Origin: Triatoma infestans
Taxonomy: Eukaryota; Arthropoda; Insecta; Hemiptera; Reduviidae
Assembly: GCA_011037195.1 (NCBI GenBank)
Contig: JAAEAF010003335.1
Coordinates: 94,872 to 158,871 of the forward strand
Reading direction: 5' to 3'
DNA length: 64,000 nucleotides
Shown here: one piece after another, positions 26,818 through 59,895 of the stretch
Position numbering within the stretch: position 1 is the stretch's first letter
Layout of the letters: the number at the start of each line of letters is the position of its first letter
Made by a program: the position numbers and the translations under genes
Notes under the pieces: generated by a model
What the model was told of the DNA's origin: nothing
The model's input: the letters and a program-made list of their open reading frames with translations, nothing else
The model's database searches: none

Positions 26818-26856
26818 ACATCAACCGGTTTCGGGCGTTTGCCCATCTTCAGGATG
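26818..26856 (-). ncRNA. Hammerhead ribozyme motif, copy 2 (core intact)
   Basis: Minus strand: CATC, CTGAAGA, TGGGCAAACGCCC, GAAA, CCGGTT, GAATG. All core bases and the CCGG palindrome are present. Stem I carries one bulged A. Confidence 0.75.
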
Positions 26857-26915
26857 CGTTTTTTCAGACAGTGTGACAACACAGACTTGCACAGAGCAAA
26901 TTCAGTTTACACACT

Positions 26916-27642
26916 CCAAAAAAATTGAAGGCGCAAACATGTATTGCAGGTTTAGATATTTAGTATACCCAAAAAAATTAAAGGGGCAACCCTGTATTGC
27001 GGAATTAGATATTTAGTATACCCAAAAAATTGAAGGGGCAACCATGTTTTGCGGGTTTAGATATTTAGTATAACCCAAAAAATTGAAGGGGCAACCCTGT
27101 ATTGCGGGTTTAGATTTTTAGTATACCCAAAAAAATTGAAGAGGCTCACCTGTATTACAGGTTTAGATATTTAGTATTCCTAAGAAAATTGAAGGGGCAA
27201 CTATGTATTGCGGGTTTAGATATTTAATATACCCAAAAAAATTGAAGGGGCAAACCTTATTGCGGGTTTAGATATTTAGCATAACCAAAAAAATTGATGG
27301 GACAACCACGTATTGCGGGTTTAGATATTTAGTATACCCCAAAAAATTGAAGGGGCAACCATGTATTGCGGGATTAGATATTTAGTATACCCAAAAATTG
27401 AAGGGGGACCATGTATTGCGGGTTTAGATATTTAGTATACCTCAAAAATGTAGGGGCACATGTATTGCGGGTTTTAGATATTTAGCATAAGCCAAAAAAA
27501 TTTATGGGACAACCACGTATTGCGGGTTTAGATATTTAGTATACCCCAAAAAATTGAAGGGGCAACCATGTATTGCGGGATTAGATATTTAGTATACCCA
27601 AAAATTGAAGGGGGACCATGTATTGCGGGTTTAGATATTTAG
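26916..27642 (+). repeat. 53-bp minisatellite array, about 14 units
   Basis: Unit runs from CCCAAAAAAATTGAAGGGGC through CATGTATTGCGGG to TTTAGATATTTAGTATA. Fourteen copies of the TTTAGATATTTAG part are visible. A higher-order duplication is evident: the three-unit block at about 27,285-27,435 recurs at about 27,489-27,640 with the same private variants (GATGGGACAACCACG, GGGATTAG, GAAGGGGGACC). Confidence 0.95.
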
Positions 27643-27702
27643 GAGTGTGTAAACTGAATTTGCTCTGTGCAAGTCTGTGTTGTCATACTATCTGAAAAAA
27701 CG

Positions 27703-27740
27703 CATCCTGAATATGGGCGGTCGCCCGAAACCGGTCGATG
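27703..27740 (+). ncRNA. Hammerhead ribozyme motif, copy 3 (catalytic G lost)
   Basis: CATC, CTGAATA, TGGGCGGTCGCCC, GAAA, CCGGTC, GATG. The second core G (G8 in CUGANGA) is T, predicted to abolish cleavage. Stems and palindrome are kept. Confidence 0.7.
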
Positions 27741-27829
27741 ACCACAAAATGAAGCAGGCTACCACGGAAAATGTCTCTGATGCTTTCCAGCTCTGCAGAA
27801 CCAACCACCACAACAACATTTTGAACTTT

Positions 27830-28250
27830 CTGCTATTTTTCGTTTTAGAGTAATTCTGTTTACACACACAACACACTACAAGCCATTTCACTAAAACTCC
27901 TGTGGCAGACGGTACAGCGTACCATGTTGTAATTTTCTTATTTTTATAATCACTATAAATTATATATAATTCAATAAAAGAAGAAAAAAAACAGGGAACC
28001 TCAAAATGTGTATATTCGGTGAAAACTCGATATCAAAAATTAGACATTACAATAATTTACAACTGCAATAACTGCAGTTAGAAAAAGTAAAAAAAAAAAT
28101 TCTACCGGAAATACGACTTTGCAGAACGAATATTTAAGATTTCCGTAATTTCCACGAAACCAGCTGCAATGATTTTCTTTAAACTTAGCATGCTAACCTA
28201 CTCAGTATATAAACCTATACTTGAAATTACGTTTCTATTTGACCAGAGGA
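27830..28250. repeat. P-family repeat fragments
   Basis: Reversed P sequence with an ACACACAAC tract to about 28,090, then a short plus-orientation piece containing TCTACCGGAAATACGACTTTGC. Confidence 0.55.
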
Positions 28251-29235
28251 TCAAAAATGAATGTTAGGATAAGGAGTTTTTTATTTTCTTTTTAGTTTTT
28301 TAAACGTAGTGTTTAATAAAATATATTAAATTAAATTAAAAATACCAATCAATAAAATGCTTTAATCTTGAAAAAAATACGCGCAATATGTTTGAGATAA
28401 AAAACAGATATGATACTGTACATAATATTACGCATTTAATGTTTCTGGTGAAAACATCGATTATTGCTGATAAGATAAAATAAATAATGTAATAATAACA
28501 ATAAAAGATCAATATTTTAGAGGAAATTCAAGAGAGAAAAAAATTTAGTGGGAAATGAATGCATTGTAAAAAAGAGAGGGAGAAAATGTAACAGTTGGTA
28601 TTACTGAAACTTATTGTTTTATGCATTTAGTATCGATTATTCAGATATGTTCAAGTTCGCCCGCTTTATATTCATGAATACATAACCTCATAATAAAACT
28701 TTGTTTCAAATAATGAAGTTTGAATTATTTAATGCAATTTACTTAACATATTATTGCCATTTATAATTAATGAACAATTGTGATGGTATCGCTTTTGTGT
28801 GAATTGTTTATAAAAATGTAAATTCTAAATAAGTACAATATTTGTGCTAGCTTTAAGTTTATTTATTTGAGCTGACACTAATGTAGATTATTTGATATAT
28901 TTTACACTCTTTGCTATAACTGTCTTTGGTATTGCAGCAATTATTAATCTCTTTTATTTGAAACATTTTTCCCAAAAAGAGAAAGAGGGTTCTGAGACCA
29001 TTTTAATGACGTTAGATTTAACTCTAAATTCTGTCATCATAAATTTTGCTGGTGAATGATGTGGTTGCTCCTTATGTCCTAAAACAAACAAGGATAATTC
29101 CGACCTCCCTATAATTAAAGGTAATGCAGTGCTTCGGACAGCTAAACTAAAAAAACTATAAAACTAAAAAAATTCTTTGTTTAATGAAAATGTATTAATT
29201 AGAATATAGACAGCAATCAGCAAAGGGTCCAATCA
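28250..29235. other. AT-rich stretch, no feature recognised
   Basis: About 1 kb of unique-looking AT-rich DNA with no long ORF and no clear match to the window's repeats beyond short P-like traces near 28,970. Confidence 0.5.
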
Positions 29236-29238
29236 GAA

Positions 29239-30520
29239 GTGTCAATATACAGAGTGTCAATTTTAACAAGCAACATCCACTTGTCTTGGTACGCCAGATA
29301 GAAACAAAATTCCAAATGACCCGTAATTTTTTCAAGCATTCTAAATACGTAATCAATTATTTTGTTTAAGCTGCAGAAATAAGAGATTTTGAAACCACAT
29401 TTCTTATTCCAAATTAGACCACATATTCTTGTTAACCAACTCTTAAAGTAGATTATCTTCTTTTTTCATGGTAAATTGGTTATTAATCTGATTTTCTAGT
29501 TGGTTATTAATCTGATCTGGACTAGTTATTCAATTTTGAACGCTGAGAAATTTTTATTTAATTTTCTTGACTTATTCTTTATTTTTTTTGGTTTTGAAAG
29601 ATTTTGTATGGAGTGATGCATGAATACGGATTATTGAATAAGGTGGACGCCGAATATGGCAGATGAAAATCCAGGTATTACACATAGTCCAGACACAATA
29701 ATTTCCTTTAAATATGTGGTGCAACCTAATAGGGAATCAACTTATAGGTCCGTATTTCTACAATAAAACATTAAACACAGGCAGGTATCTTCCTTTTTCT
29801 TAAGTGAAGTTCTCCTAGATCTGCTTCTTGGAAATGTCATGTTTGCACGCTAGCAATGATGTAGTTTCAGCAAAATGGATTTCCAGCTCATAATCGAGGA
29901 TAGGAAGGTTGTCATCTAACAGCACACTTAGCTCGTGGGGGGGGGGGGGGGAATGGATTGGCACGACACCTCCCCAGACATTTTTCCGGGCACTTCCCCA
30001 GATTAATTCTTCTTGGGGATACCTTAAAAATTTTGTAATGAGTGCAGTCAATGAGAACTAGACAAAATGGGTGTGTTTGTGTCCTTATTTAATGATGATG
30101 CCCATTTTAAACAACTAATGTGAATATGTTTACGTCTTATTTGAGTAAAAACTAAAAAAACAGTGGAATAACAGCAACGAGAAGGCAGAGAAATTTCTTT
30201 ACATTCAAAATTGAATATCTCAGCGAATATTCACAGGAATTGTTTCGTTCAAAAACCATTTTTCATGAAAAAATATATACTTAAAGAATTATACATTCAA
30301 GAATAATGAATTGTTCATTACATAAAAATATGTGGTCCAATTTGAAATAAGAAAGTTGTTTCGAAATCACTAATTTTTGTAGCTTATAAAAATAATCTAT
30401 AACATTAATCGAATATCCTTGAAAAAAATTAAGAAATTTTTGTGGATTTATGACGTACTTTCCAACATAAGTAGGTAGTACATGTTGAAGCTGTCACCCT
30501 GTACAATCTCAAAGAAATGG
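29239..30520. repeat. Inverted-repeat structure with arms of about 200 bp
   Basis: 29,239-29,440 and 30,320-30,520 are diverged inverted copies: CTTATTCCAAATTAGACCACATATTCTTG against the reverse of CAAAAATATGTGGTCCAATTTGAAATAAG, and the flanking AATTTTTTTCAAG. Between them lies about 880 bp with a run of 15 G (29,937-29,951) and a 78-codon minus-strand ORF of no known family. This is probably a DNA-transposon derivative, but no TSD was identified. Confidence 0.6.
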
Positions 30521-31245
30521 ATGGTAGACGATAGAATTAAGATTTTTAAAGATGGATAATAATGGAGGGGGTGGGGGATGACATAATGAAATGCGCTTTT
30601 TATAGTATTTACGTATTTTACATCCCAGAAGTGAACGATTTTAATTAACTAAGGAAATTAAAAACAACGTTTGGGTGGGTGGCTCCAAGGCAAAATTATC
30701 ATCTTTTATTTATATTTTGATGAAATATACTAGCAGATTGGGATCCGATCTCATTCGTGCTATTTAATTTAATAGGCCACCCTAATGACATCATCCCAAA
30801 AAGTGACGTCACGCCTTGTTAAGACAATTATTCTTAACTATGTACTATGGTGTTAGCAAAACTGTATCAGTCAAGATAGCTATTTCTAAACTGACATATT
30901 GTACTTGTTAGAAACATATGTATCTACGTAATTTTTTAATTTTTTTTTGTATCCAAGAAACGAACATAATAATTTTTAGTGTCTGTGACAAACTTTGTTT
31001 TTTTGTAAACCAAGGACAAAAATTAAATTGATCAATTTTAATTAACTGGAAACTGTTTCAATTAAAACATTGAGTAATCAAGTGAGGCTAAAGACTATTT
31101 TCAATTTTATTTATTAATTGAATTATTAAAAAAAAATATATTGAAAAGTGGTAAGTTGCACATACGTTAAACTTATAATAATTATGTTATTCATTTTTAG
31201 AACAACTTCTATTATAAATTCCAATAACATTCATAATTCCCATTA
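30521..31245. other. AT-rich stretch, no feature recognised
   Basis: No coding signal, RNA gene or matched repeat seen over about 725 bp. Confidence 0.45.
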
Positions 31246-31246
31246 C

Positions 31247-31812
31247 TTTCTCTTTCTGGGTACTGTTGTATTTTTTGTAAGATTTTTCGAAAGACAGTTT
31301 TCGTTTTAAATAGATGTTTTTTAAGTTTTCCTGAATATGAAAAATAATTGATGTGAAACATTCATTTTTTCTTACTGCAATTTACTTACAATTTACAGCA
31401 ATTTACAGCAATTTATACAATTTCATTACAAATTTTCTTTTAAAATTACAATGCTTAAAAAACGTTTAGTTAAGATGACCATAAAAAGAAGTTGCTAGGA
31501 GTTATACACCTGAGTAGACATTTTGGGCGTTCTCTGTCTCAATTAACAAAGCTTGCAGCGGCAATTTAAATTTAACCAATCTGACAGGTTCCACAAACCC
31601 CTCTAAATTTTTTTTTTGTTTATTGAAAAAATGTAATATAAATAAAAGTGACAGGTTTATATCTATGAAATTACTATTCTTATTTTGCTAGTAGTTTTTA
31701 ATAAAATTCTCAAAAACACAAAAACCTATTTCTGTGAAGTGGCACTTCTGGTTTTCTGATTTTCTAGCAATATGCATTATATATGTGATAGAACGATCGT
31801 GTTGAAGTGATA
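31247..31812 (-). repeat. P-family repeat fragments, the target of the hAT insertion
   Basis: A short P start occurs at 31,247. A reversed copy from about 31,340 contains the CTTACTGCAATTTAC and GAAGTGGCACTTCTGG blocks. The reversed copy is interrupted at CTTTAGAG (31,813) by the hAT element and resumes at 33,189. Confidence 0.6.
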
Positions 31813-31969
31813 CTTTAGAGCAATGATCGCCAAACTTTTTTGATCGCGTAACCCTAAAACGAAAATAAATTATTATTGTACCCAGACATAATATATATGT
31901 GTGTGTAGTTAAGAATCAAATTATTTATTATTTATTAACTAAAACAATATTAATATATGTACCTACCTG

Positions 31970-32290
31970 TAAATTAAATTGGAAATTTACATTTTGAATT
32001 AGAATTTAATGTGATGAAAATCTGGTTTGATATGCCCTCTGTTAATGCAATTCGAAGATCTGATTCTAACTCTAATTTATTTCTGTATTTAGTTTTAATT
32101 GTTGTCATTGCAGGAACGCTACTTCACAGAGCATGTAGAACCAAAGAGTAAGATTGCATTCGTTGCTGTGCTTACTAAATCTGGATATTCGGTTTCCAAT
32201 TCTATCCACCAATTTATGAAGAGATTTTTCTTTAAATTCGGATTGTAACGTTGTTCTTTCTCTCATGTTGCAGAATGGCTGAACAGTCAT
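31970..32290 (-). pseudogene. hAT transposase C-terminal remnant
   Basis: The minus strand gives NLTLWFYMLCEVAFLQ and, one frame over, MTTIKTKYRNKLELESDL followed by RIALTEG. This fits the end of a hAT dimerisation region ('F..M..IK.KYRNKL..E.DLR.AL'). A frameshift and internal stops make it inactive. Only the last part of a normal transposase (usually over 500 aa) is present. Confidence 0.7.
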
Positions 32291-32478
32291 GGATGGCGCC
32301 GGGGGAAAAAGCCTGTTATTAAATGCTCAAAAATCTATTGTTTTGGGTTCTCGAATACATATATGGATAAGGAATTGGAAGGAATGTTGAGGCTAAATAA
32401 ATCTCCTGAAATAAAACTCTTCCAATAAATTAGAAAAATGTACATCAAATCTATATTTATGGAAATAATTACTATATG

Positions 32479-32588
32479 AAAACAAGAATTAGTTGGCTTC
32501 TCGACCAATTCCAAGGTAAAAAACAAAAGTAATTTGGTAATTGTTTTTTACCTTGGAATCGGTCGAGAAGCCAACTAATTCTTGTTTT
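32479..32588. repeat. 48-bp near-perfect palindrome
   Basis: Arms 32,479-32,526 and 32,541-32,588 are reverse complements at 47 of 48 positions, with a 14-base spacer. As RNA or extruded DNA this would form a very stable hairpin. It lies inside the hAT remnant just upstream of the hammerhead element. Confidence 0.95.
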
Positions 32589-32762
32589 TATATTACAACT
32601 AACGGCCAACAAAGAAAATCTTCTGGAAATTACTATATTTTTTACGTGTCAGAAAAATTTGCTAAATTTCCATTATAAATATATAATTGTTGTGGTGGTT
32701 GGTTCCGCAGAGCTGGAAAGCATCAGAGACATTTTCCGTGGTAGCCTGCTTCATTTTGTGGT

Positions 32763-32800
32763 CATCGACCGTGTTTCGGGCGTTCGCCCGTCTTCAATGC
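32763..32800 (-). ncRNA. Hammerhead motif, copy 4 (degenerate)
   Basis: Minus strand GCAT, TGAAGA, CGGGCGAACGCCC, GAAA, CACGGTC, GATG. Bases are missing at the start of the core (CC of CATCCTG), and an extra base breaks the palindrome. Predicted inactive. Confidence 0.55.
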
Positions 32801-32906
32801 GTTTTTCAGACAGATGATAACACAGACTTGCACATAGCAAATTCATTTTTTAACACACTCAAATTTGCTATGTGCAAGTCTGTATGGTCATAACTGTCTG
32901 AAAACG

Positions 32907-32944
32907 CATCCTGAAGATGAGCGAACGCCCGAAACCGGTCGATG
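32907..32944 (+). ncRNA. Hammerhead ribozyme motif, copy 5 (core intact)
   Basis: CATC, CTGAAGA, TGAGCGAACGCCC, GAAA, CCGGTC, GATG. The core, stem I and CCGG palindrome are complete; stem II has one A-C mismatch. Confidence 0.75.
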
Positions 32945-33259
32945 ACCACAAAATGAAGCAGGCTACCACGGAAAATGTCTCTGATGAAATATATAATTTC
33001 TGCTAAATTTCCCGCTACACGCAATTAAAATTTTTCCTTGTATGACAGCGTACTTCTGCGAAGCGTACTTCTTCGGAGGATGACTGTAAGATAGACAGAC
33101 TGCGGACAGAACACACATACAGTATTTTGAAGGGAAACTTGCCGTACCCTCAAATATGAGTTTGCAAACCCCAGTTTGGAGACCACTGCTTTAGAGGAAA
33201 GGATGAACCCAAGGCTCCACGGGAAAAACCCAAAAAATAAATTTTCCAGAGAAAATGTT

Positions 33260-33910
33260 TCAGATAAAAATGATACGAACAGAACCACACATGGCCTGTA
33301 CAATACATAACCTAATTAAATATATATTTGCATTTCCGAATCTATTTATTATGAAGCATCGAAACTTAGCAATAAATAATATATTTATTAAGTAATAATA
33401 TAAAGTTTTACTTACTATCTGATATTTGTAAAAGCTCATAAAGATAGTTTGCATCTTCTTTTATTGAGATGTTTACATAAACTTCAGTTATCTAAACAGA
33501 AAACATAACCTTATAATTATTCCCTACGGGCGGGAAGAAGGCAGAGTGTAGGTTACAGTGCGTAGATAATTGCAGGCTTGCCAGCAACCCTCCCGCCGCC
33601 ACTACTGTCCAAAACAAACATCTTCATATCTTATAGAACGTTAATCAAAGAGTGAAAACTAACAAGCTAGAAATGGGAGAAGAGGGCGTTTATTAGATTT
33701 TTTTCATTAGATAGATTTCTTCTCTATTGTGTTTTGGTTTTGTCCAGTTAAAGCTCCGCTCATAAAACAAATATAACGCGCACATCTACAAATATATATA
33801 CCTATACATTTCATTGTAGTGCACTAAATCAAAAATATTTTTCAAAACTGGTTACACTCTTCAGTTCGTTTTTTTAGTGCGTTCTTCTTAGAAAAAAAAA
33901 CATATTAAAC
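33260..33910. other. Unassigned AT-rich stretch
   Basis: Follows the end of the P copy interrupted by hAT. It contains a short GC-richer patch at 33,525-33,610. No coding or RNA gene is supported. Confidence 0.4.
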
Positions 33911-33911
33911 T

Positions 33912-34784
33912 TGTTGTTGAGTTAATTTGTGGCGTGTTGCGGACCATTTTGAGGAAATTAATCAACAAACTCATTGACAATGGGCTCTTGGGACTCCTTT
34001 TTACAAGCTTGAGCACACACCCTTAGGCTGTGGGTGTCAGTTATATGAACCTTAATATGTAAACACTGTAGCAGGTAACATAACAAAACAAAAACAAAAA
34101 GTAAATAAATAAATGTTGATTTAGACGAAGGAGGAGTGAGTGGACATGCGTGAAAAACAAACAACCCATAATTTTATCTGATCAGGTGTTTTTTGGGGGC
34201 GTTGCGAGATATCACCTTGATTGTCTCCCCCCCCCCCGGATTTAAAATGAAATTTATGATACTTCCCGAATATTAACACTAACATCTTACTTAAATGTAA
34301 ATGTAATAAATACTGTGCCATTGAAATAACACCTGATGTGAAACATCATACGGATATTCTTTTGCTGCAGTTACAACCATTATAATTGATAAATTTTTTA
34401 CTCTCTCTTACGCCTAGTAAAATTTTGTGGCTAATTTGAAGTGTCTCAATGATGAAATTCTCGGTTAATCTGTATAGGAACTGGATACATGATGAACTGG
34501 CGCTTAATAGACACTTTCATTTTGCCAGAGTAAGCCCAAAATTAAATTCTAGAAATAGTGATTATTATTATGCATATTATGCTTCGTTATAGAATATCAT
34601 TTGCAGCAAATCGCCAAAAAAATGAAAATACTGGCATTACTGTTCGTATAACTGACACCCACAGCCTGAGGGTGTGGGCTCAAGCACGTAAAAACAAGTT
34701 CCAACAGCCAATTGTCAATGATTTTATATGGTTCGTTGATTAATTTATTAAAAATGGTCCGCAACACTCGACAAATTAACTCAA
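33912..34784. repeat. Inverted repeat with arms of about 145 bp and a conserved short reading frame
   Basis: 33,912-34,052 and 34,636-34,784 are inverted copies (GAGTTAATTTGT, GTTGCGGACCATTTT, CACCCACAGCCT/AGGCTGTGGGTG). Reading outward from the centre, both encode ITDTHSLRV, AQA, PIVN and end in VD-stop, although about 20% of bases differ. The 580-bp interior has a run of 11 C at 34,227-34,237 and no recognisable protein. The element class is unknown. Confidence 0.7.
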
Positions 34785-35122
34785 TTCTCGTACTCCTAAT
34801 AAAGAGAAAGTATTACGAGCTTACCAGATTTTCGAAATTGTGTTTTCTCTCGAAATACGTTTTGGACTGATCTGAAAACAAAAAAAAATGTTTTTAGCAT
34901 ACAGTCTGATAATCTTTTGTGTGTTTGTGTTAACAGAATACCTCAAAAAACGAAAAAAATCACAGGAAGCCCGAACTTGATATACGTTTAGGTACTACCA
35001 CCATATCTAATACGAAATCTGTCGGGCAAAATCCACCAACCGGAAGTATGAACTTAGTAAATCTTTTTTTTTTTTTTTAGTTTTTCGCGATTTTTTCGGA
35101 AATGGCTTCAATGACTTTTTAT
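34785..35122 (+). repeat. P-family repeat, 5' part, cut by a LINE fragment
   Basis: AATAAAGAGAAAGTATTACGAGC opens it, followed by the CTCGAAATACG, CCACCAACCGGAAGTATG and TTCGGAAATGGCTTC blocks. P sequence resumes at about 36,120-36,260 after the LINE. Confidence 0.65.
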
Positions 35123-36065
35123 TGAACAATATTAATCCTATGAACCTGGAGATGGCCGAAGGAAGACTTGAGGTACTTCATGGCGTCAGTGCTAAAAATA
35201 ATATGAGTGAAATTCAGATGAAGCTAACATCACTGGAGGCAATAGAAAAAAAATATCCAGCAAACGAATGGCTTCATATATATACTGACGGGTCATATGA
35301 TGCCAGTAAGAGGCGGAGCCGACATTTTCTCAAAAGCGTTCCAAGAAAGCATCCCTCTTCCAAACTGGTGTGGTGGACAATTATGATGGGGAAATGTACG
35401 CTGTCCGTGTTGCCCTAGACTTTATGAGCACTAGGCCTGAGGAGAAAGTAGTGTTGCTGATCGACTCCCAGTCGGTTATACGATCGCTTACGTCACCGGA
35501 AACCAGCGAAGGTTGGCTACGCTAAGCTGCGTGTAAAAAAAGCATTAACCGCCTGACTAAAGCGGGTAAACTCATTGTATTGCAGTGGATACCGGGCCAC
35601 TGCGGAATTTACGGGAACGAGCAAGCTGATCGTTTGGGAGGGATCGAAAAAAGAACAACCTGACCTACCCGTTCCACTAAGAAATTTAAAGGCTCTAGTA
35701 TCGTCGTCATTAAGGGATTTATGGCACAATAAGTACAGAGAAAAGGGAGTTGGACGTAAGTCGGAGAAATTGGTGGAAGCAGCGGCAGGATTCCCGCCAC
35801 TCTTCCGCGTTTGGTTGCTGTTGCCTGCTTCCGTATGCTGACCGGCCATGATCTGCTACAGAAGCACCTCCACCGTATAGGGATTGTTGACACCCCCCCA
35901 TTGCCCTTTGTGCGGCGGGGAAGACATAACAGGGGAGCATTTAGCTCTCTGCCCCGAACTCAAAGATGTTACATCATCTTTGCAATCCACTTTCGTGTAT
36001 GATGCACATTTATACTGGGCTGCCAGAAGAAGAAAGGGCGAAAGGCCAAACTAATGGCGTTGTAA
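35123..36065 (+). pseudogene. LINE-derived RNase H domain, frameshifted
   Basis: Three plus-strand frames together hold the RNase H catalytic series: IYTDGSYD (first D), NYDGEMYAVRVALDF (E), VVLLIDSQSVIRSL (second D) and LQWIPGHCGIYGNEQADRL (last D). A downstream ACFRMLTGHDLLQKHL resembles the region after RNase H in Jockey or I-type LINEs. It is 5'-truncated, with reverse transcriptase absent. Stops and frameshifts rule out activity. Confidence 0.85.
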
Positions 36066-38120: not shown

Positions 38121-38161
38121 TATGAGGGGGGACTAGCAGGGGAAAAAATAATTTATTTGTT

Positions 38162-38197
38162 GCCAACGTTCGACCTCTTTTAGATCTTCATCAGGGC
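38162..38197 (-). ncRNA. Second, damaged hammerhead-like motif (PLE end)
   Basis: Minus strand: GCC, CTGATGA, stem II GATCT..AGGTC (one G-U), GAAC, GTT, GGC. The core CUGAUGA is perfect and GCC/GGC can pair as stem I. Where GAAA+CGUU is expected there is GAACGUU, one A short. Its different stem II marks a separate family from the CCGG type. Confidence 0.5.
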
Positions 38198-42830: not shown

Positions 42831-42834
42831 GTTT

Positions 42835-43449: not shown

Positions 43450-44570
43450 AGTAAAAAGTTATTTTTAATGAGGTTTTGGGGTCTGAGGTCTATGCTAGAC
43501 AAGCTTTGTTGGTTTAGACAGAGGGCGCTCCACTCACGTTCTCTTAGCTATACAACTAACCTGAATATCAGTGATCACTTTTTTTTTACTTTCTCTTACT
43601 CCTAGTGAGAGGAAGTATTGTTATCGTGCTAAATTTTCGATATCGAGTTTTCACCGGAAATACCGTTTTGAGGTCCCCTGAGTCAAAAAAGTGGATTTCA
43701 GCAAATGGTCTGTGTGTGTGTGTATGTGAACAGCATAGCTCAAGAACGAAAAATCGCAGAAAGTTCAAACTTGATATTCCGTTTCGGTATCACCATGGAT
43801 CCGACAGTAGGCCAGCGGTCGGAATTCCTCGAACGGAGTACCACGTGACTAAAACATGTTTTTTCACTTTTCTCAACAATGGCTCCAACGATTTTCTTTA
43901 AACTTGAAATATCAACTACACTTACAAAGATCTATAATTTTTATTTGCAACATTTCTCCGGGAAAATGCATTTAAGGGCAATTTTAGGGGAGGTGTTTGT
44001 CGACTAAAGGTGCTATTTCAGTTTACTATACAATTCTATTATCTAAACAATATTAATTACAATTAAATGTGTTCTTGAAATTCTGAGTTTGAAAAAATCG
44101 GATGACTGGAAGTGCGATTTTTACTAAAATGTATTTTTCAGTTTTCTGGTATTTTTTTATTTTCTTGCAATTTTCTCAAAAAATGCTCCAATGATTTTTT
44201 TCAATCTTCGAATATCAACTGCACATGCAAAGATCTACAACTTTTGTTTAAAACATTTCTCTGGAAAAATTCATTTAAGGGCACTTTTGGGGGAGGGGTG
44301 GGATTAGGTTTCTTCTAAAGTGCTATTTCAGTTGATTATGCAATCCTACCATCCAAACAAAATAATTAGAAATAAATAGGTGGCCAAAATTCCGAGTTTC
44401 AAGAAAATAAGTAAACAGGAAATGCGCTTTTACTGAACTTTTTTTTCAGTTTTCGACGAAGTCCAGCGAATTTCATCTGATTTGGTACACAAACTATAAA
44501 ATTTGTCAATTACAATTTTGAAAACATGAGTAAGAGAAAGTTGTGTGAGTGTTTCACACCAGATTTTTTT
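43450..44570 (+). repeat. P-family repeat, full-length copy
   Basis: Preceded by the AATGAGGTTTTGGGGTCTG..ACTAACCTGAATATC segment shared with 36,910. The P start is at about 43,580 (ACTTTCTCTTACTCCTAGTGAGAGG), the GT microsatellite at 43,710-43,722 and the 3' end at GAGTAAGAGAAAGTTGTGTGAGTGTTTCACACCAGATTT (44,528-44,570). Confidence 0.85.
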
Positions 44571-44599
44571 TGTTGTGTGAACGATACACCTCAAAAACG

Positions 44600-45290
44600 A
44601 TATCGCTGTAACTTTAAACTTAATATACCCACTGGTGACACACTGGTGTCCTCTTAGTCGGCAATGCCCTGTGAGGAAACCCGTAAGAACGCGGAGCTTG
44701 TTCTTGCTCAATCCGATGCAGGCCTCCGATCTCTGTTGGTTATAATTTCCCAAGCAGATCTTAGCCTGCCGCAAACCGAGGAGGGAGTACCAGAGTTGAG
44801 ATCTCCTCGTCACCTCCTCCTTTCTAAGTTCCTCCAACAGAAACTGGTCGCTGACCCCACAAAAAGGTTCCGGCCCTAGGATAGGGGTTCTAGCGCCTAA
44901 CGTGGCCAGGGCGTCGGCCATCTCATTCCCTTCAATGCCAACATGCCCCGGCACCCACCACAGGGTAACTTTTGTTCCTCCTGCCTAGGTTATTAAGTTT
45001 ACCTAGGCATTCCCAGACCATTTTAGAGCTGATAACCGATGCACTCAATGCTCTAATGGCTGCTTGATTATCGGAAAGGATTACAATCTCCTGGTTCCTA
45101 TATCTCCTATCGAGGTTAAATTTTACGCATCTTCCAATAGTGTATATCTCCGCCTGGAAGTTGCTGGGAAAATTACCCATGGGTTCCGAGTGCTTGATCC
45201 TTGAACCAACCACTCCCGCCCCAGTCCCCTCGAGGGTCTTAGACCCATCCGTATACCAATGGCATGTTCCTTAATGCCCAACAGCCCTTA
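44600..45290 (-). pseudogene. LINE-derived RNase H domain, minus strand
   Basis: Minus-strand frames encode NFQAEIYTIGRCVKFN (E region), IVILSDNQAAIRALSA (second D) and MPGHVGIEGNEMADALATLG (last D). Then LLEELRKEE and a C-terminal GLSKNKLRVLTGFLTGHCRLRGH, the usual RNase H tail of Jockey or I-type LINEs. The frame breaks near 44,940; the reverse transcriptase is missing. Confidence 0.87.
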
Positions 45291-47222: not shown

Positions 47223-47411
47223 TAGAATAATGTAGACATCTTCATTACCTGTTATATCTTAAAAACTAATATCTGTAATATGAAGTTCCCCTATTTGTCA
47301 TCATTACAATGTGATATGAAGGGCAAATCAATGTTAAGTAAAATAGTAAGTTTCAAAAAAATTTATAGAATTGCAATAAATGCATAATCGTGTTAGTATC
47401 TTCACCCCAGA

Positions 47412-48225: not shown

Positions 48226-48277
48226 TACTTTAAGCTAGTTTGTAAGTTACTAATATTACTGAGTTTTATTTCCGCAG

Positions 48278-51560: not shown

Positions 51561-52262
51561 TACTTATTCCGTTTTATTTTATTTATTCCGGCAAGCTATC
51601 GCGGACCACAGCCTTATACATATTCAGAGGAACCTAAACACATATATTTCCAGTGAATACTCAATTTTCAAAATCGTGACACAATAGCAATAAGAGAGAA
51701 AGTTAAAAAATTTCATAATCTCTTTTACTTTAAAGATATGATAGAGATGATAGGATGTTCAAAGGGATAAATAGGGTATCCAGCTGAGAAAGAAGTTTGG
51801 ACCACATGCCGTGAGTTAATGTAAGTTTGCACTTATAATATTAACTAACTAATATATATACATATATACTTAATATATGGGGACAGATATATTATTGTGA
51901 GTTTATGTTTTGACAAGTAATGTATTTCGGTAGGTGTTAAAGTTCAAAAGATAATTAGTTGTAGAAGTAAAGTGGGGAATAGGACAAGTTGTTTCTCCCA
52001 CTGCTAGTAATCTACCATAGTATTTGAGTTAGGAAACTATTTTTTGTTATAATTAAGTTTTGTTCATTTTACTAAACAATATTATATGAAGTTATATTCT
52101 CTTTTTGTCACCTCATATACATATAGATTTTAAAACATATTACTTTTACAGATACAAAGAAGATCTTACTGTTCATATCCCTCATAAAATACATTGAGAC
52201 CACAAGTATACAGATGTACATCAAAATAGAGATGTATAGTTTTCGAGATATCGAAACGGATT
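51560..52262. other. AT-rich stretch with a short reversed P fragment
   Basis: 51,600-51,705 contains reversed P terminal sequence; the remainder holds nothing recognised. Confidence 0.4.
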
Positions 52263-52264
52263 GG

Positions 52265-52690
52265 TATAGATAGATGACATTACTTATTCATACAGCAGTA
52301 CCCCATGTTTCAACGTGTAAAAGGACAAAAAAAACTTTTGCCCCCAGTCGCTCAGACTGCCCAACTGTATACATTAACAACACACCAATATCTCACCATA
52401 TTATTCCTTACCTTGGACTGGTAAACAGACGCCACCTTACACGAAACTCTTTGTGACGAAGATTTGCTAACCTTCATTGTTAAACGTTTACTCGATAAGC
52501 GATCCAAATTAGACCTAAAAGATATTAACTTTACCAATTACCATAGATGTTGCAGCGCCTTAAAAAAACTCAATTCGACATACGGTATGCAACTCTGAGG
52601 AACTGCCTATTTGACTAACACTAAACGGATACAAGCTATACAAAAACAAAAAAAAATAAGATTTTACGTTCGATCATGCAAGGACTTTAA
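52265..52690 (+). pseudogene. Jockey-like LINE reverse transcriptase end, decayed
   Basis: Plus-strand frames give VYINNTPISHHIIPYLGL, then NRRHLT, later YGMQL, a stop in place of W, and GTAYLTNTKRIQAIQKQK followed by KIRFYVR. This matches 'NGTPIPW...VKYLGV.LDRRLTW' and 'TYG.QLWG.A..SN..KIQ..Q.K.LR' of Jockey-type reverse transcriptases. Confidence 0.75.
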
Positions 52691-53189
52691 ATAAGTGACA
52701 AATGATGAAACTAGGTTTTTTTTTCAATCAGCATGAGACATCTTATGATTTATAAGTGTAACATTTATAAATAAGTTTAAATGTCATATTCATTACTAAA
52801 GTGTGACAGTCTGATAATTTTCAGACGTTTTATTATCTCTAAACGGCACCCACCATTGAAGGTGAATATCACTACATGTAAAACTTAAATAATGATGTAA
52901 ATGTCATGTAATTTACATTCTGTTAACTCTTAGCAGATAATTATTTTATTTTTTAATTTCAGCAAATAGTAAAAAATACAGAATCATTTTTATTGGTTAC
53001 AAATTAGATTTTCCATTTTAAATTAAACAATTTATTATTTTATCAAGTTACTTTCACAAATTTAATGGCCATAAATAATATTATGAGTAATAAATCATCA
53101 TTAATAATGTAAACAATATTAAGCTAATTTGCACTAATTGCATTATGGAAATTACACACTAAGTTGTGCTAAAATAAATATACATTATG

Positions 53190-53680
53190 TTCCTACCGAA
53201 AGGCACGTAAGTTGAAGCGATTACATTGTGGTCCACAAGATGGCGCCAATTACATTGAACAAACCTAAATAACATTTGAAATTTAACGTCATACAGATTC
53301 CTCAGAACCAACTAAAAATAAATGTTTCAAAAAAAAGCGATTACGTTTATATCTGTGACGTAAGCATTTCAAGTTTAAAGAAAATCGTTGTGGCCGTTTT
53401 AGATAAAAAAAAGTAACTGAAAATTCTGAAAAGTCGCACTTCCGATTAACCAATTTTCGTCAAATATTACACCGACGTGGTAGTTTAGAGGGAAGCTTAA
53501 CGTTGTTTCTGATCCCAAATCCTAAAAAAAAAGAGAAAAAAATCAATTTTAATCAGAGCTTATTATGAAAGGAGGAGTGGCAATAAACAGAACATCAAGT
53601 TTGAACTCATCGCGATTTTTCACTTTTCTGATATTTTGTTCACCACACACACACACCATTTGCGTTAATTTTGTTCAATG
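53190..53680 (-). repeat. P-family repeat, minus orientation, partial
   Basis: AAGTTTAAAGAAAATCGTTGTGGCCG, CACTTCCGATTAACCAATTTTCG, ATCAAGTTTGAACTCATCGCG and an ACACACACAC tract at 53,646-53,656. Confidence 0.65.
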
Positions 53681-53689
53681 TTTTTTTAG

Positions 53690-54730
53690 CAATTAACTGT
53701 TTCAACTCTCTTTTTTGACAAAAGTGCTTTTAAAACGCCAGAAAGTTTTCTTCAAGCCACCACACTAATTAATCAACAACCAGAACAAGCAAGAGTTAGA
53801 AATAGCCATATCATTGTTCAGTCACTCTACCCTTTATTTTTACTCTTTTACCTCATTAGTATCGTTAAAATATAAAATTGTGAGTACAATGCCAGTTTGC
53901 GTGTTCATTCATATCACATCGACCAATAGCCTGGTGATATAACAAATTAATTAATGAGGTCTACGAAAATATTAAACAAAATTGGAATATCTTAATGAAA
54001 ATATTGCAATATAGCCGTAAATGGGCGTTAAATGATAAAAGAAATACTGGAAATTAATCAAAAACCCAACACTTCCCTCAGGGAACACCTAATATAACCT
54101 TAAAAAGAAACAATAACATGTATGAATTCAGTTAAAAATTGAAGGAAGAAGATATAAATTAAAATTTATATTCACCGACTCTACCTTGCTTGAGACTTAG
54201 TAGATTAGAGATGGCTTCAGGCATAAACTTGTTATGTTTCTTTACAATTATATTTATCTTAACTAGAGTTATATTTATAAGGTCTATTGTAAGAAGAACA
54301 GACCTGTCATCATCAATCATCATTGTTTCTACCTCATTATTATCATCAGCAAATTATCATTTAATTAGTGAATTAAATTTGGACAAAATCTATTCTTATT
54401 AATATTACAGCCGATGTCTGTTTGTTAATAATTGCTTATAACTCCGATTGTATTTGTTCAGTTATGTTGAAATATTGCTGTGTTTATGTCCTAACAGAGA
54501 TTATAGGCAGCTTTTTTCTTTCGCCACCAAATTTCCTCCTTCAAGTTTTCAGAAAGGATGAAACCCAAAACCCCAAATATTTGCCTTGATATTTGTTTTA
54601 CATAGAAATTTGATCAAGCAAAATCTATTAAAAATAATATAATCGATACAAAATTTTGATAGAAGAAACTTCCCGATTATAGTTATTATTACTATAGAAA
54701 TCTATTTATATGTTAGGTAAATATAATAAT
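53690..54730. other. Unassigned AT-rich sequence
   Basis: About 1 kb with no recognised coding or repeat feature; the 70-codon ORF at 54,190 has no family signal. Confidence 0.4.
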
Positions 54731-54734
54731 TATT

Positions 54735-55050
54735 ATACACTATAATTTCCACTGATAAATACATGTTTTGAGGTACGTTAGCAAGAAAAAGTGGTTTTTA
54801 GAAATTGATATGTGCTTTTTGTGTGTACAAGTCTTCAGACTTCATTCAGATGTTATATCAGATGGACCACAAAGGGAATCCATATGTTTCCTCATAAGTA
54901 AAAGCTTACCGAGGCGATTATCCTCGGCATGATTAGAGGCTTATCGCTAAAATGCTATATCGGTAATATGTAGTGTTCGCCAAACCACTTATAGACTAAC
55001 TAAGGTCTATTAAACATTATAAACAATACTTACTAGGAGTCAGAGAAAGT
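54735..55050 (+). repeat. P-family repeat fragment, rearranged
   Basis: CCACTGATAAATACATGTTTTGAGGT and AAGTGGTTTTTAGAAATTG, then an end piece CTAGGAGTCAGAGAAAGTAAAAA. Confidence 0.55.
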
Positions 55051-56245
55051 AAAAATATTATATTTTGAAAAGATGTTTTTCAATTAGAAGAAAATGAAGA
55101 GAGATATTTGTTTTCTACATGTAAATAAACGTCCAAAAATAATGAAAACTTGTTCAGACTTGGAAATGAAACAAAGATTTTGCTGACTAAAATACTTTTT
55201 AAAATGTAGAGAAGTATACACAGCTAGAAAAAGGTTATTTCATCAGGTTATACACGACCGGAGAAGGTTGCACTAGCAAGGTTAATTGATTTTCATGATT
55301 GGTTAGCAAAAACAATAATTGAATTCCCTTTCAAATAACTTCTCTGATACTTTTGTACAGGTGTATTATCGTTTCAGCCTTTGATTTCTTTTTTGTTTTA
55401 TTCTGTTTTTTTCCCGTGATTTATGGAGATTAATTTAACTTAAAGGTTCATTTTTTTCGTTCACCCTCTAAAGCAGTTCTTTGTTTTATAATTGATTTTT
55501 TTTTTTAATTCCATAATTTTCAGCAAAAAGATGCGCATTTAAATGAACTCATCTAGAGAAATCTTTAACCTTCCCTCATGTTATTTTCATTTATGGGTGG
55601 TCCTGTGATCCCGGAAATGGACAGGTTTTACTGTACTCGAAACAAATGAGTTTTTTGTTGGGATGGGATGAGAGGGATCTTTTGAAAAACTATGAATATA
55701 TTTATAGAATTCTCATAATTTGTAATATTTTTTTACTTTATCTCGCCGCTGTAAAAAGAAAATTTTACTTCGTGTTCAACTTTCGAAATCGAATCATTGG
55801 AATCCTATGTGAATGTTTTAAGTCCTATGGGAAGAACAAAACAAATCTGATGTAAAACATTGAAACGACAAAAATGTAATGGATTACAATTTAATTGACA
55901 ATTTTTTTTTTAGAATTTAATTAGAATAAAACTAGGCTTATCACACATACTTTTATTTATTAATAAAATAACTTTTAGTTGGATTAAAAAAAATACTAAA
56001 CATAGAATACTCTCGATTACAAAAAATTTGTTTTCATAGATTGTGTGCATTATCTGAAGACCCTAAATATAATTGGAATTCTTAAATAAAACGTGCCCTG
56101 ATCGTACATAATATATCATATCGAAAAGAATTGATGATTTGTCTCAAACTTTTAATAATTATTGAATAACTACTATATTGTCTGCTTCAAAAAATTCTTG
56201 TAGAGCGTGAAAGATTATTATTTATTATCGCGGGATATCATTTTT
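55050..56245. other. AT-rich stretch with little recognised
   Basis: A weak P-like start occurs at about 55,735 (TTTATCTCGCCGCTGTAAAAAG). Otherwise no feature is supported. Confidence 0.4.
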
Positions 56246-57238
56246 TTACTTTCTCTTACTCCTAGTAAGAGGAAGCATTGTAATCGTGTCAAATTTTCGA
56301 AATCGAATTTTCACTGGAAATATCCGTTTTGAGGTCCCCTGAGTCCAAAAAAGTGGTTTTTAGCAAATGGTCTGTGCGTGGGTGTGTCTGTGTATGTATG
56401 TGAACAGCACAGATCAAAAACGAAAAACCGTAAAAGGTTGAAAACTGATATTCCGTTTAGGTATCACCATGGCATCTGACAGTGGGTCATCTGTCGAAAT
56501 TCCTCAACCGGAAGTGCCACTTTACTAGTTGTTTTTTTTACTTTTTTCCGTTTTTCTCAAAAATGGCTCCGACGATTTTCTTCAAACTTGGTAGATTAAC
56601 TACACATATAAAGAGCTACAACTTCTATTTGAAACGTTTCTATGGGAAAATTCATTTAAGGGCAGTTATGGGGGAGGGGTGGGGTTAGGTTTCCATCTAA
56701 AGTGCTATTTCAGTTTATTAAACAGTTCTATCATCTACAAATAATTATAATTGAATATAATATTGAAATTCCGAGTTTCAAAAAAATCGGATAACCGGAA
56801 GTGCATTCACATTACCACTTACTAAATGATTTTTTTCACTTTTTCGCGATTTTCTCAAAAATAACTCCGACGATTTTCTTGAAACTTCGTATATAAACTG
56901 AATATACAAATATCTATAACTTTTTTTAAAAACATTTCTCTGTGAAAATTCGTTTCAGGGTACTTTTGGAAGAGGGGTGGGGTTATTTTTTCTCTAAAGC
57001 GCTATCATAGTTTATACAATTCTATCATCCAAACAAAATTAATTAGAAATAAATAGATGCCGAAAATTCCGAGTTTCAAGAAAATTAGTAAACCGGTAGT
57101 GCGCTTTTACTGGATAGTTTTTTCAGTTTTCGACGAATTTAATTAAAAAGGGGTACACAAACTATAAAATTCGTCAATTACAATTTTGAGAACTGGAGCA
57201 AGAGAAAGTTGTGTGAGTGTTTCACACCAGATTTTTTT
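56246..57238 (+). repeat. P-family repeat, best full-length copy
   Basis: Start TTTACTTTCTCTTACTCCTAGTAAGAGGAAGC with a hairpin CTCTTACTCCTAGTAAGAG; a GTGTGTCTGTGTATGTATG tract near 56,380; blocks in full order; end GGAGCAAGAGAAAGTTGTGTGAGTGTTTCACACCAGATTTTTT. The outer ACTTTCTCTTACTCC and GGAGCAAGAGAAAGT are near-complementary subterminal repeats. There is no ORF. Inverted subterminal repeats, a 3' hairpin and insertion next to T-runs resemble helentron-type (rolling-circle) non-autonomous elements, but CTRR-type or TT-junction proof is lacking. Confidence 0.85.
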
Positions 57239-57239
57239 T

Positions 57240-58155
57240 TTTTGCAATCGTTGAATAATGTGACGTTTACTACGCAAAAGTGAGTTACATATTAATTTCT
57301 CTCATTAGTATGTGAAAGTATCATTATTCAACACTAATTAGCCTGACATCTAGCGTCTCTACGCGAAAACATATCAAAACAAATTCCAGATATAGCGGAT
57401 TTGAGGTTATACCAAACGGAACAGGTTATTGAGAGAGGGAATATTTGACTTGAATTAAAATACATTCTCATTGTTTTCATATTCATATAAATTAAGAATC
57501 TATTTAATATGGTTGCAGAAAATACCTAATATTTAACTCGTGAGCGAAATAAGAATTTTCTTAAATCTTTCGTCCAGTTTGATGCAAAACTATCTCACAT
57601 AATTCATATCTCTATAGCTTTCATTTGTTTCTTCCTTTTATTTTTAAATCGATTTTTAAGCAGTGTTGATGAATCTGTGTCGTTAGTTGCATTTCTATAC
57701 TGCCTTTTCAGTATCTGCACGGTTCCACCACCTAGTGAGAGTTAAGTAAAAACAAAATATTTAGTAAAAATTTCGACTTTTATGAAAATTGGTCTGTGAG
57801 AACTGCAGTAGGAGAAAGTAGGTGAATATTTCAAACAAGATATTTTTTTTCTTAAGCCGTAAATTTTCAAAGAGATAGCCATATATATATATAATATATT
57901 TCCTTATAAAATACGGAAGGGATCTAACCCGGTTCTTTCCCAATGGTTTATGATAAAAAAGGGTTTTTTGTGTTATATTCCCCCCTACTACCTAACAACC
58001 GCTTTATAAAAATAAAATAAAAAAACCAGTACTGCAAAGTGGTTAAGCAATTTTTAGAGGCCCCCTCTTTCCAGAGCTTTCAAAACAGGATTCAATTTTT
58101 TTTGTCTCCCTGGACCGCCATGACAATTTGAATTAGTGCATAATAAAAAAAACAC
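57240..58155. other. AT-rich stretch, no feature recognised
   Basis: A P-like end (GCAGTAGGAGAAAGTAGGTGAATATTTCA) at about 57,803-57,835 is the only match. Confidence 0.4.
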
Positions 58156-58639
58156 AAAATATTACTTCATCAAGAGAATGGATGCATCATATTTAAAAAG
58201 AGCTTTAAAAAAAAAATATTGAGGTATACAACGAAACTCAGGGTGAGTTGCTTAATCCGAGTAAGAAAAAGTATTGGAACCCTTCTCTTAATACAGCCAG
58301 TAAACCTTTTTATATTTTTATTGCATAATTTTATGTAAATGAAAAAACGTTATCAACTTCTTTATTTCCCATTCTGGCATTTGTTGATCGCATTAGACTG
58401 CAAGTTCTCTCCCCGGTGAATGTTGTTTCCATCAACAAATAGGAGACTTATTCTTAGAAAGATCAACCAGCGTTTTTTATTATTACTGTTGAAAGTAGTT
58501 TTTGGAAAGGGGACTATTAAATTTGTACTATAAAATATGTCCATCTAATGGCATATTCACCACAACAAAAATATTACAATTAACGACAAAACATATACTT
58601 TGCACGATTAATTAAGTGTTTCTAACGACACTTGATACT

Positions 58640-59540
58640 GTAGTAAATTATGTTGTCCGCACATAATAATCGTCCTTTAAGTTACTGTTATCAATGTAAT
58701 TCTTAGGTTTAGCTGCATTCTTGATGGTTTTCACCCGAAATCTTCATGTGCGATGCGGTGGTAGCACCTGAACGGAATACCACGTTTGAGCTTCCGGCAA
58801 TTGTTTGATTGCCTTCAATTTACATGAATAAATAATATAAACGTCTTTTTTGAGGAAAGCAAAATTTCCCCCTCCCTCAAAACCCCCATAATCCCGGAAA
58901 AAGATTGAAACAAAAGTGATAGGTCTCTTTATGTATAATTAGTATACCAAATTTAAAGAAATCTGACAGTTTTTTCAAGGAGCAAATCGCAGAAAACTGA
59001 AAGAAACTGTTGAGTAAAAATGCACTTCCTGTCAACCGATTGTCTTCAAACTCGAAATTTTGGAAACTCATTTATTTTGTAATTAATATTGTTTAGATGA
59101 TAGAATTGTATTATTAACTAAGATTATTAGCACTTTAGAGGAAATATAACCCTCGCCTTCCCTAAAAGTCCCCATAAATGAATTTTCCCAGATTAATGTT
59201 TCAAATAAAAGTTGTAACTCTTTGTACGTGTGTAGTTGATATACTTAAGTGCGGACCTAAGTTTTGGAGCAAATCGCAAAAAACTGAAAAAATCCAGTCA
59301 ATAAAATGGTACTTCCGGTTTGATTGATTTTTGATCATAACTTTGTGCCGATTCAGCTGACAAACTTAAACTAAATAACAAATTTAAACGTTCTGCGATT
59401 TTCCATGTTTTTAGTTATGTTCACCCCACACACATACAGATCATTTGCCAAAAAAAAAAATTTTGTTTGTTCTCAGGGGACCTCAATACAAGTATACTCA
59501 ATATCGAAAATTTGAAACGATAGCAATACTTTTTCTTAGG
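58640..59540 (-). repeat. P-family repeat, minus orientation
   Basis: Reversed blocks CCTGTCAACCGATTGTC, TAAAAGTTGTAACTCTTTGTACG and GGTACTTCCGGTTTGATTG, ending near TTTTTCTTAGGAGTATG (59,530-59,546). Confidence 0.7.
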
Positions 59541-59714
59541 AGTATGAAACTGCGGAAATCCGTGAAGATTGACGAATGCCTCCAAATCGTCGAAGATCAT
59601 AAAATGAAGCAGTGTATCCTGGAAAAGATTTTTGATGTTTCTTGTGGTGGATGGTTCCGCAGAGCTGGAAAGCATCAGAGACATTTTCCGTGGTAGCCTG
59701 CTTCATTTTGTGGT

Positions 59715-59752
59715 CATCGACCGGTTTCGGGCGTTCTTCCATCATCAGGATG
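59715..59752 (-). ncRNA. Hammerhead ribozyme motif, copy 6 (weak stem II)
   Basis: Minus strand: CATC, CTGATGA, TGGAAGAACGCCC, GAAA, CCGGTC, GATG. Canonical CUGAUGA and GAAA, but two mismatches in stem II. Confidence 0.65.
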
Positions 59753-59858
59753 TTTTTGTTGAACGGTGTAATAACATAGACCTGCACAGAGCAAACATAG
59801 TTGATACACTGCTGCAGTCTATGTGCAAGTCTATGTTATTACACTGTTCAACAAAAAT

Positions 59859-59895
59859 ATCCTGATGATGGGCGAACGCCCGAAACCGGTTGATG
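59859..59895 (+). ncRNA. Hammerhead ribozyme motif, copy 7 (best canonical core)
   Basis: ATC, CTGATGA, TGGGCGAACGCCC, GAAA, CCGGTT, GATG. Canonical CUGAUGA, perfect GGGCG/CGCCC stem II with AA loop, CCGG palindrome, and stem I of three pairs (ATC/GAT). Confidence 0.78.

What the first reader, a model, noticed from the sequence alone, without database searches (positions are those of the whole stretch)
26818..59895. A family of compact hammerhead ribozymes built to work as dimers
Seven loci (7,769; 26,818; 27,703; 32,763; 32,907; 59,715; 59,859) share CUGANGA, a 5-bp stem II, GAAA, and the palindrome CCGG where stem III should be, then U-H and a GAUG that pairs with the preceding CAUC as stem I. 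A CCGG palindrome cannot fold back without a loop but can pair with a second copy, so activity would need two RNAs. Small hammerhead variants that cleave as dimers are known from Penelope-like elements; these fit that type. Copies 2, 5 and 7 keep the core, copy 3 has lost G8, and copy 4 is degenerate.
Basis: partly seen in the sequence, partly recalled or inferred. Interest (0 to 1): 0.85.

Follow-up and report, generated by a model that had tools for sequence, protein, structure and literature searches.

The report
Penelope retroelement repeats carrying small hammerheads
The seven spots are parts of four insertions of a very abundant Penelope-type jumping gene whose end repeats carry a small motif of a known self-cutting RNA kind; several of the seven copies are damaged and none was shown to cut.

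Summary
The motif is real: CAUC-CUGANGA-U-GGGC-GAAC-GCCC-GAA-ACCGGU-H-GAUG. A strict form occurs twice in the window and in 0 of 300 simulated windows. A looser pattern has 18,352 exact matches in the genome and 0 for the reversed control. [quoted passage not shown] The seven loci are four insertions. Three are head-to-head pLTR pairs with 10-13 bp target-site duplications, one arm carrying an extra 'tail', a layout described for rotifer Penelope. The genome also holds an open 809-aa PLE frame (RT, GIY-YIG) whose pLTRs carry a hammerhead with an ACGT palindrome. Five families change stems I and II in concert. Corrections: stem II has 4 bp plus one extra nucleotide after A9; stem III is ACCGGU; the pairs are inverted, so one transcript of them cannot form a sense dimer and is predicted to fold into a long hairpin. 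Dimer cleavage of small PLE hammerheads is published. Filed as a new member of a known kind. Activity and the autonomous partner are untested.

The parts
7769..7806 (-). Hammerhead copy 1 in a single pLTR (7722-7863); core intact, palindrome broken (AACGGU)
   Evidence: no partner arm and no TSD found
26772..26781 (.). Left target-site duplication CATTTTGAAC of insertion A (right copy 27817-27826)
26782..27816 (.). Insertion A: inverted pLTR (no tail), 53-bp tandem array 26916-27642 in the middle, direct pLTR with tail
26819..26856 (-). Hammerhead copy 2: strict motif, H17 = U, predicted cut between 26823 and 26822
27703..27740 (+). Hammerhead copy 3: G8 replaced by U, so expected inactive
27713..27816 (+). 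Possible N-terminal codons of a PLE ORF plus 'tail' in copy 3, from the ATG made of A9, the extra U and the first base of stem II: MGGRPKPVDDHKMKQATTENVSDAFQLCRTNHHNN
   Evidence: translation; other copies; an older family keeps a similar frame
32689..32986 (.). Insertion B: head-to-head pLTR pair (left arm tailed) with TSD AAATATATAATT at 32677-32688 and 32987-32998
32763..32799 (-). Hammerhead copy 4: degenerate (two bases lost at the core, insertion in palindrome)
32907..32944 (+). Hammerhead copy 5: core intact, A/C mismatch in stem II, H17 = C
59642..59932 (.). Insertion C: head-to-head pLTR pair (left arm tailed, right arm untailed) with TSD TTTTTGRTGTTTC at 59629-59641 and 59933-59945 (one mismatch), inserted inside the old eighth relative
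59715..59752 (-). Hammerhead copy 6: core intact, stem II broken
59858..59895 (+). Hammerhead copy 7: strict motif (U/G pair in stem I), H17 = U, predicted cut between 59891 and 59892
59560..59641 (+). Left piece of an eighth, old relative of the pLTR, hammerhead core lost; its remainder continues right of insertion C (from 59946). With flanks joined it aligns without gaps to the arm query (40.4 bits against 25.4 for the left piece alone)

Best explanation
These are pseudo-LTRs of a Penelope-like retroelement family that is very abundant in this 941-Mb genome. Each pLTR carries a small type I hammerhead whose stem III is a loopless six-base palindrome, and an ATG that opens a reading frame overlaps the catalytic core. 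In an active element, sense RNA would cleave 3' of H17 when two copies pair through ACCGGU (a double hammerhead), either in trans or between direct tandem pLTRs. The cut would fall 24 bases inside that frame. The dispersed pairs in the window are probably dead-end insertions: a reverse transcriptase copied uncut pLTR RNA, an inverted second arm was added, and 10-13 bp of target DNA were duplicated. Shown here: sequence motif, copy number, TSDs, inverted arms with one tail, coordinated stem changes, and a PLE with an open RT/GIY-YIG frame and the same kind of motif in the same genome. Inferred: cleavage, its dimer nature, mobilisation by a PLE reverse transcriptase, that the frame is the ORF start, and the role of the start-codon overlap.
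For: Strict motif 2 in window, 0 in 300 simulated windows; 18,352 genome matches, 0 in reversed control. In 16 copies that were not fetched by the core pattern, the 9 core columns vary in 4 of 144 cells, flanks in 190 of 1,749. Random 9-column flank sets are as conserved in 128 of 20,000 draws, upstream columns alone 15, downstream alone 489. Twelve sites separate two subfamilies; inside the 39-nt hammerhead only position 7 and one base outside stem I differ. 25 head-to-head insertions: 21 with exactly one tailed arm by machine, 19 with TSD score 9 or more against 6 of 600 mismatched-flank controls. Removing insertion C and one TSD copy restores a gapless older relative. Inverted pLTRs, TSDs of 9-10 bp and one optional 31-bp tail are described for rotifer Penelope (PMC3846280 section 6). 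L062 has an 809-aa frame with RVT_1 (29.0 bits, cut-off 29.6) and GIY-YIG, an inverted pLTR plus pLTR-ORF-pLTR, and an ACGT hammerhead intact in 2 of 3 pLTRs. Five families: 40 of 40 stem pairs standard in the forms used (39 of 40 with the commonest listed form of family 2), against 84 of 160 with strands swapped between families. Stem II pairing was a condition of the scan that found three of these families; stem I was not.
Against: No full-length copy of this very family with its own RT ORF was found. The protein search meant to find one did not complete, and the longest frame after the ATG in 43 sampled copies is 89 aa, in a copy of an older family; 84 aa in this family. Rfam hammerhead models do not hit the window even at E 10, though they also miss the L062, L032 and L049 motifs, so this test is uninformative. 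ViennaRNA prefers a monomer hairpin that pairs part of the core, and for the consensus a non-hammerhead dimer (-31.2 against -27.3 kcal/mol). The 16-copy conservation count leaves out 6 divergent copies, several of which have lost the core. Against the downstream flank alone the core stands out only mildly (489 of 20,000). No RNA data of any kind. A canonical hammerhead has no extra nucleotide after A9 (recalled).
Confidence: 0.85

Rival explanations
1. The family is a separate non-autonomous, pLTR-only miniature element (mostly about 180-500 bp, two inverted arms, no ORF) multiplied in trans by another PLE, comparable in habit to metazoan retrozymes but with inverted rather than tandem arms.
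For: 25 of 42 sampled insertions are head-to-head pairs, 19 of them with TSD. A tblastn search with the L062 ORF matched nothing inside a sampled insertion (L024, L032 and a weak hit in L027, all outside).
Against: The downstream part keeps a reading frame like an ORF start. Severely truncated copies of an autonomous element would look the same. The autonomous partner was not looked for to the end.
Confidence: 0.35
2. The hammerhead is a relic: once active in ancestral PLEs, now conserved only because it lies in a promoter, start codon or protein-binding hairpin.
For: The predicted monomer fold is a hairpin that is not a hammerhead. 64 of 67 arms contain both sides of the cut, so uncut RNA was the template (biased sample). 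In PAc, hammerhead mutants still insert (PMC11167929 passages).
Against: Core and a palindrome are kept while both stems are rewritten in concert in five families; the only core difference between the two subfamilies is position 7.
Confidence: 0.2
3. Inverted-repeat DNA transposon (MITE) with chance resemblance to a hammerhead.
For: Two inverted arms and flanking duplications.
Against: The ends are asymmetric (one arm with a tail in 21 of 25 pairs), TSD length varies, some arms are 5' truncated, and the strict motif did not occur in simulated sequence.
Confidence: 0.03

Closest known systems
[quoted passage not shown] Lunse, Weinberg and Breaker 2017; both known here only from titles and from passages in other papers)
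   Same: Type I, minimal, helix III lacking or replaced by a palindrome, in PLE pseudo-LTRs; dimer cleavage (passages in PMC7761336 and PMC6466107).
   Different: Palindrome is ACCGGU rather than the ACGU of three other families in this genome; one extra nucleotide after A9 (also in those ACGU families); pairs here are head-to-head, not tandem. Whether the published consensus contains these features could not be read.
PAc (Poseidon, Anolis carolinensis) hammerhead, PMC11167929 (passages read)
   Same: ORF starts at the beginning of stem II; [quoted passage not shown] uncut RNA is suggested to be the dominant insertion substrate.
   Different: PAc cleavage was seen only with protein added; our family has no demonstrated ORF or activity.
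Adineta vaga Penelope families Pen2/Pen2a, PMC3846280 (section 6 and passages read)
   Same: Inverted pLTRs, TSD 9-10 bp, one optional 31-bp tail that extends the ORF's first codons.
   Different: The Pen2 elements described there keep an ORF or part of it; no ORF was found in our sampled insertions.
Metazoan non-LTR retrozymes, PMC7229834 (passages read)
   Same: Short, non-coding, type I hammerhead, dimer activity in axolotl.
   Different: Retrozymes are direct tandem repeats with canonical type I helices and loop-loop contacts; here arms are inverted and the motif is minimal.

Membership tests
Hammerhead ribozyme, type I | CUGANGA ... GAA core with A15.1-U16.1 and H17 before the cut | tested here: met
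   CUGANGA and GAAA in 5 of 7 window copies; genome pattern
Hammerhead ribozyme, type I | Stem II directly on A9/G12 without inserted bases (consensus recalled) | tested here: not met
   one extra nucleotide in family 1, family 2 and three ACGT families; of 36 motif hits 35 have one extra base, 1 (chance-like) has two, 0 have none. Most of the 31 ACCGGT hits were fetched with a pattern that forces it; the 4 ACGT hits were not. The scan required a palindrome throughout
Hammerhead ribozyme, type I | Stems I and II conserved as pairs, not as letters | tested here: met
   stem I was not required by the scan, yet all 4 ACGT hits have 4 of 4 pairs; family 2's commonest listed form has one stem I mismatch
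Hammerhead ribozyme, type I | Self-cleavage after H17 | not testable with these tools
   needs in vitro transcription
Small PLE hammerhead that cleaves as a dimer | Loopless palindromic stem III | tested here: met
   ACCGGU in 5 of 7 window copies
Small PLE hammerhead that cleaves as a dimer | Direct tandem arrangement of two motifs (as stated in PMC6466107) | tested here: not met
   25 of 42 sampled insertions are inverted pairs, the others single; two direct neighbours in L059 are separate insertions by my reading. An active full-length element was not seen
Penelope-like element | pLTRs, inverted copies, optional tail, TSD | tested here: met
Penelope-like element | ORF with reverse transcriptase and GIY-YIG next to these pLTRs | tested here: inconclusive
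   present in a different PLE family of the same genome (L062), not found for this family; the decisive search did not complete
Metazoan retrozyme | Direct tandem repeats with canonical type I hammerhead | tested here: not met
Rfam hammerhead models | Covariance-model match | tested here: inconclusive
   no match in window nor in the PLE motifs used as control

The most novel reading that the evidence does not exclude
PLE hammerheads form a distinct core class with an obligatory extra nucleotide after A9. In this family that nucleotide, with A9 and the first base of stem II, makes the ORF's start codon, so pairing of two RNAs through ACCGGU would switch an mRNA into cut, untranslatable pieces: a concentration-sensed choice between translation and processing, with core and palindrome kept at more than 18,000 places of one genome. 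In the three ACGT families the extra base is A, so the start-codon part would be special to this family and its older relative. Whether the extra base is described in the two papers I could not read is unknown.
Probability: 0.12. Interest if true: 0.6.

Novelty: new member of a known kind. Interest (0 to 1): 0.35.

Why it matters
The role of PLE hammerheads is called unknown and a mystery in a review (PMC7761336 passages). This genome offers at least five PLE hammerhead families side by side, 18,352 places that keep core and palindrome of one of them, and an open 809-aa PLE frame. That makes comparative and biochemical tests of dimer cleavage and of the extra core nucleotide easy to set up. 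The window itself holds ordinary copies, most of them with a defect.

Tried and rejected
Rejected: a MITE (asymmetric ends). A retrozyme (no direct tandem). A link of this pLTR to the PLE fragment in L032: beside that fragment lies another, ACGT-type motif, so the neighbourhood proves nothing. The best Rfam microRNA matches in the window fall on inverted repeats and are below the gathering scores. Matches of a loose pattern in bacterial and archaeal genome contigs (14 loci) were not followed up; I take them as chance, by inference. Two scans of viral contigs gave nothing. The whole-genome DNA query returned nothing, not even the window's own copies; the tool says that very common words are skipped. 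Larger-element boundaries for the 17 single arms could not be fixed with confidence. The dimer energy for copy 5 includes a non-standard pair and is not used. The cut-site count is biased, because 27 of the 45 sources were fetched with the intact motif. By machine, one search counts insertion C as having two tailed arms; one search shows that the second 'tail' belongs to the older relative in which C sits.
Full report
Observation. The seven loci are real copies of one repeat. In hammerhead orientation the best copies read CAUC (or UAUC) CUGANGA U GGGC NAAC GCCC GAA ACCGGU H GAUG. A strict test asked for 4-bp stem I, CUGANGA, 0 or 1 extra base, stem II of 4-6 bp with a loop of 3-8, GAA, a palindrome of 4 or 6 from A to U, then H. 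It finds copies 2 and 7 and nothing else in the window, and nothing in 300 Markov-1 simulated windows. Copies 3 and 4 have lost core bases, copy 1 the palindrome, copy 6 stem II, and copy 5 has one mismatch.

Surroundings. The loci are not independent. Copies 2/3, 4/5 and 6/7 are the two inverted arms of three insertions with target-site duplications CATTTTGAAC, AAATATATAATT and TTTTTGRTGTTTC. In each, one arm runs on into a 'tail' that the other lacks. The two arms meet head to head with 12 and 9 bp between them in insertions B and C, while in insertion A a 53-bp tandem array lies between them. Copy 1 is a single arm without a found partner. Insertion C sits inside an eighth, old relative: with C and one TSD copy taken out, the flanks align to the arm query without a gap (40.4 bits against 25.4 for the left flank alone). 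This also shows that the apparent tail right of C belongs to the old relative.

Whole genome. G000 has 941 Mb in 13,959 contigs. The pattern CTGANGATGN{6,20}GAAACCGGTYGATG has 18,352 exact matches and the reversed control 0. I pooled 45 sources (window, 17 stretches of 10 kb, 27 loci fetched with the pattern; 3 overlapping loci of the 30 were dropped; 315,919 bases) and defined 42 insertions around matches of 25 bits or more: 25 head-to-head pairs and 17 single arms. Of 25 pairs, 21 have exactly one tailed arm by machine, 2 both (one of them insertion C, corrected above) and 2 none. TSD score is 9 or more in 19 of 25 pairs, in 1 of 17 single arms, and in 6 of 600 controls with flanks of different insertions; for insertion C I set the right boundary by eye. 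Of 67 arms, 64 contain both sides of the predicted cut and 1 starts near it. Many of these loci were fetched with the intact motif, so this count is biased, but the second arms and the 10-kb stretches were not chosen so.

Conservation. Of 25 matches in the window and the 10-kb stretches, I used 16 and dropped by hand 3 fragments without the core and 6 divergent copies, several of which have lost the core. The 9 core columns differ in 4 of 144 cells, upstream flank in 115 of 825 and downstream flank in 75 of 924. Random sets of 9 flank columns are as conserved in 128 of 20,000 draws overall, in 15 for the upstream flank, and in 489 for the downstream, possibly coding, flank. Two subfamilies (10 and 6 copies) differ at 12 sites; in the 39-nt hammerhead only position 7, which is free in the hammerhead consensus (recalled), and one base outside the 4-bp stem I differ.

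Other families in the same genome. A scan that required stem II but not stem I found, in 320,120 bases, 31 ACCGGT motifs, 4 ACGT motifs and one AGCT motif; ten simulated sequences of that length gave 0. The ACGT motifs belong to three different sequence families (L032, L049, L062); all 4 have 4 of 4 stem I pairs and exactly one extra base, A, after A9. The AGCT hit has no stem I pair and two extra bases and is taken as chance. A second ACCGGT family has stem II GGAT/ATCC and another stem I; 4,140 genome matches lie within 3 mismatches of my 41-base pattern, which I assembled from several copies. The commonest form among the about 100 listed places reads AGGAAC, which leaves one mismatch in stem I. 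Across the five families 40 of 40 pairs are standard in the forms used (39 of 40 with the commonest listed form of family 2), against 84 of 160 when strands are exchanged between families; seven of the eight pair positions have two or more pair types.

Penelope identity. A search for GIY-YIG gave 80 matches among 150 scored of 1,157 candidates. One, fetched as L062, is an 809-aa open frame with RVT_1 (29.0 bits, just under the cut-off of 29.6) and GIY-YIG (28.1 bits, cut-off 22.6). It is bounded by an inverted pLTR and two direct pLTRs. Each of the three carries a hammerhead core, GGUA CUGAGGA A GAUUAU... GAA ACGU U UACC; the 3' one has one change in stem II, so 2 of 3 pass the scan. PMC3846280 section 6 describes inverted pLTRs, TSDs of 9-10 bp and a 31-bp tail that extends the first codons of the ORF. 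In PAc the ORF starts at stem II and the cut is 26 bp downstream. In our family the ATG formed by A9, the extra U and the first base of stem II opens a frame MGERPKPV... (MGGRPKPV... in copy 3), and the older family keeps a similar frame with other codons. I found no full-length copy of this family; the search meant for it did not complete.

Mechanism. A loopless ACCGGU cannot close stem III inside one RNA. Two RNAs can form a double hammerhead in which each core cuts the partner strand. ViennaRNA gives a hammerhead-like dimer as best for copy 2, but for the consensus another dimer is better (-31.2 against -27.3 kcal/mol) and the monomer prefers a plain hairpin (-11.9). In the inserted pairs the second motif is antisense, and the RNA of insertions B and C is predicted to fold at -165 to -211 kcal/mol. 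Any function therefore probably lies in an active element, not in these insertions. Since almost all sampled arms carry both sides of the cut (biased sample), uncut RNA is copied, as suggested for PAc.

Comparison and verdict. It works like, and very probably is, the small PLE hammerhead. Dimer cleavage of that class is in print (Lunse 2017, title only; passages in PMC6466107 and PMC7761336). Differences worth a look are the hexameric palindrome, the extra nucleotide and its overlap with a start codon. The two key papers are not held, so I do not claim that these are unpublished.

Noticed in passing
26916-27642: A 53-bp tandem array of about 14 copies lies between the two pLTR arms of insertion A, so it was captured or expanded inside the element.
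   Followed up: partly
59560-59967: Insertion C is nested in an older relative of the same repeat; the joined flanks align without a gap.
   Followed up: yes
32473-32594: A strong inverted repeat of another sequence just left of insertion B; it causes several sub-threshold microRNA matches in Rfam.
   Followed up: no
17847-19067 and 44430-44984 (-): Fragments that look by eye like non-LTR retrotransposon reverse transcriptase and RNase H.
   Followed up: no
4027-4542 (-): Open frame that looks by eye like a C2HC zinc-finger protein exon.
   Followed up: no
8930-63908, many places: Dispersed repeat families of 60% identity or more, with a tandem pair of 298-bp units at 56517-57085, apparently unrelated to the hammerhead repeat.
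   Followed up: no
L032 near 1066 and L049 near 2039: Two further Penelope-type hammerhead motifs with an ACGT palindrome and one extra base after A9, from families other than L062.
   Followed up: partly
L062 877-3306: An open Penelope-like element frame of 809 aa (RT plus GIY-YIG) in the same genome.
   Followed up: partly
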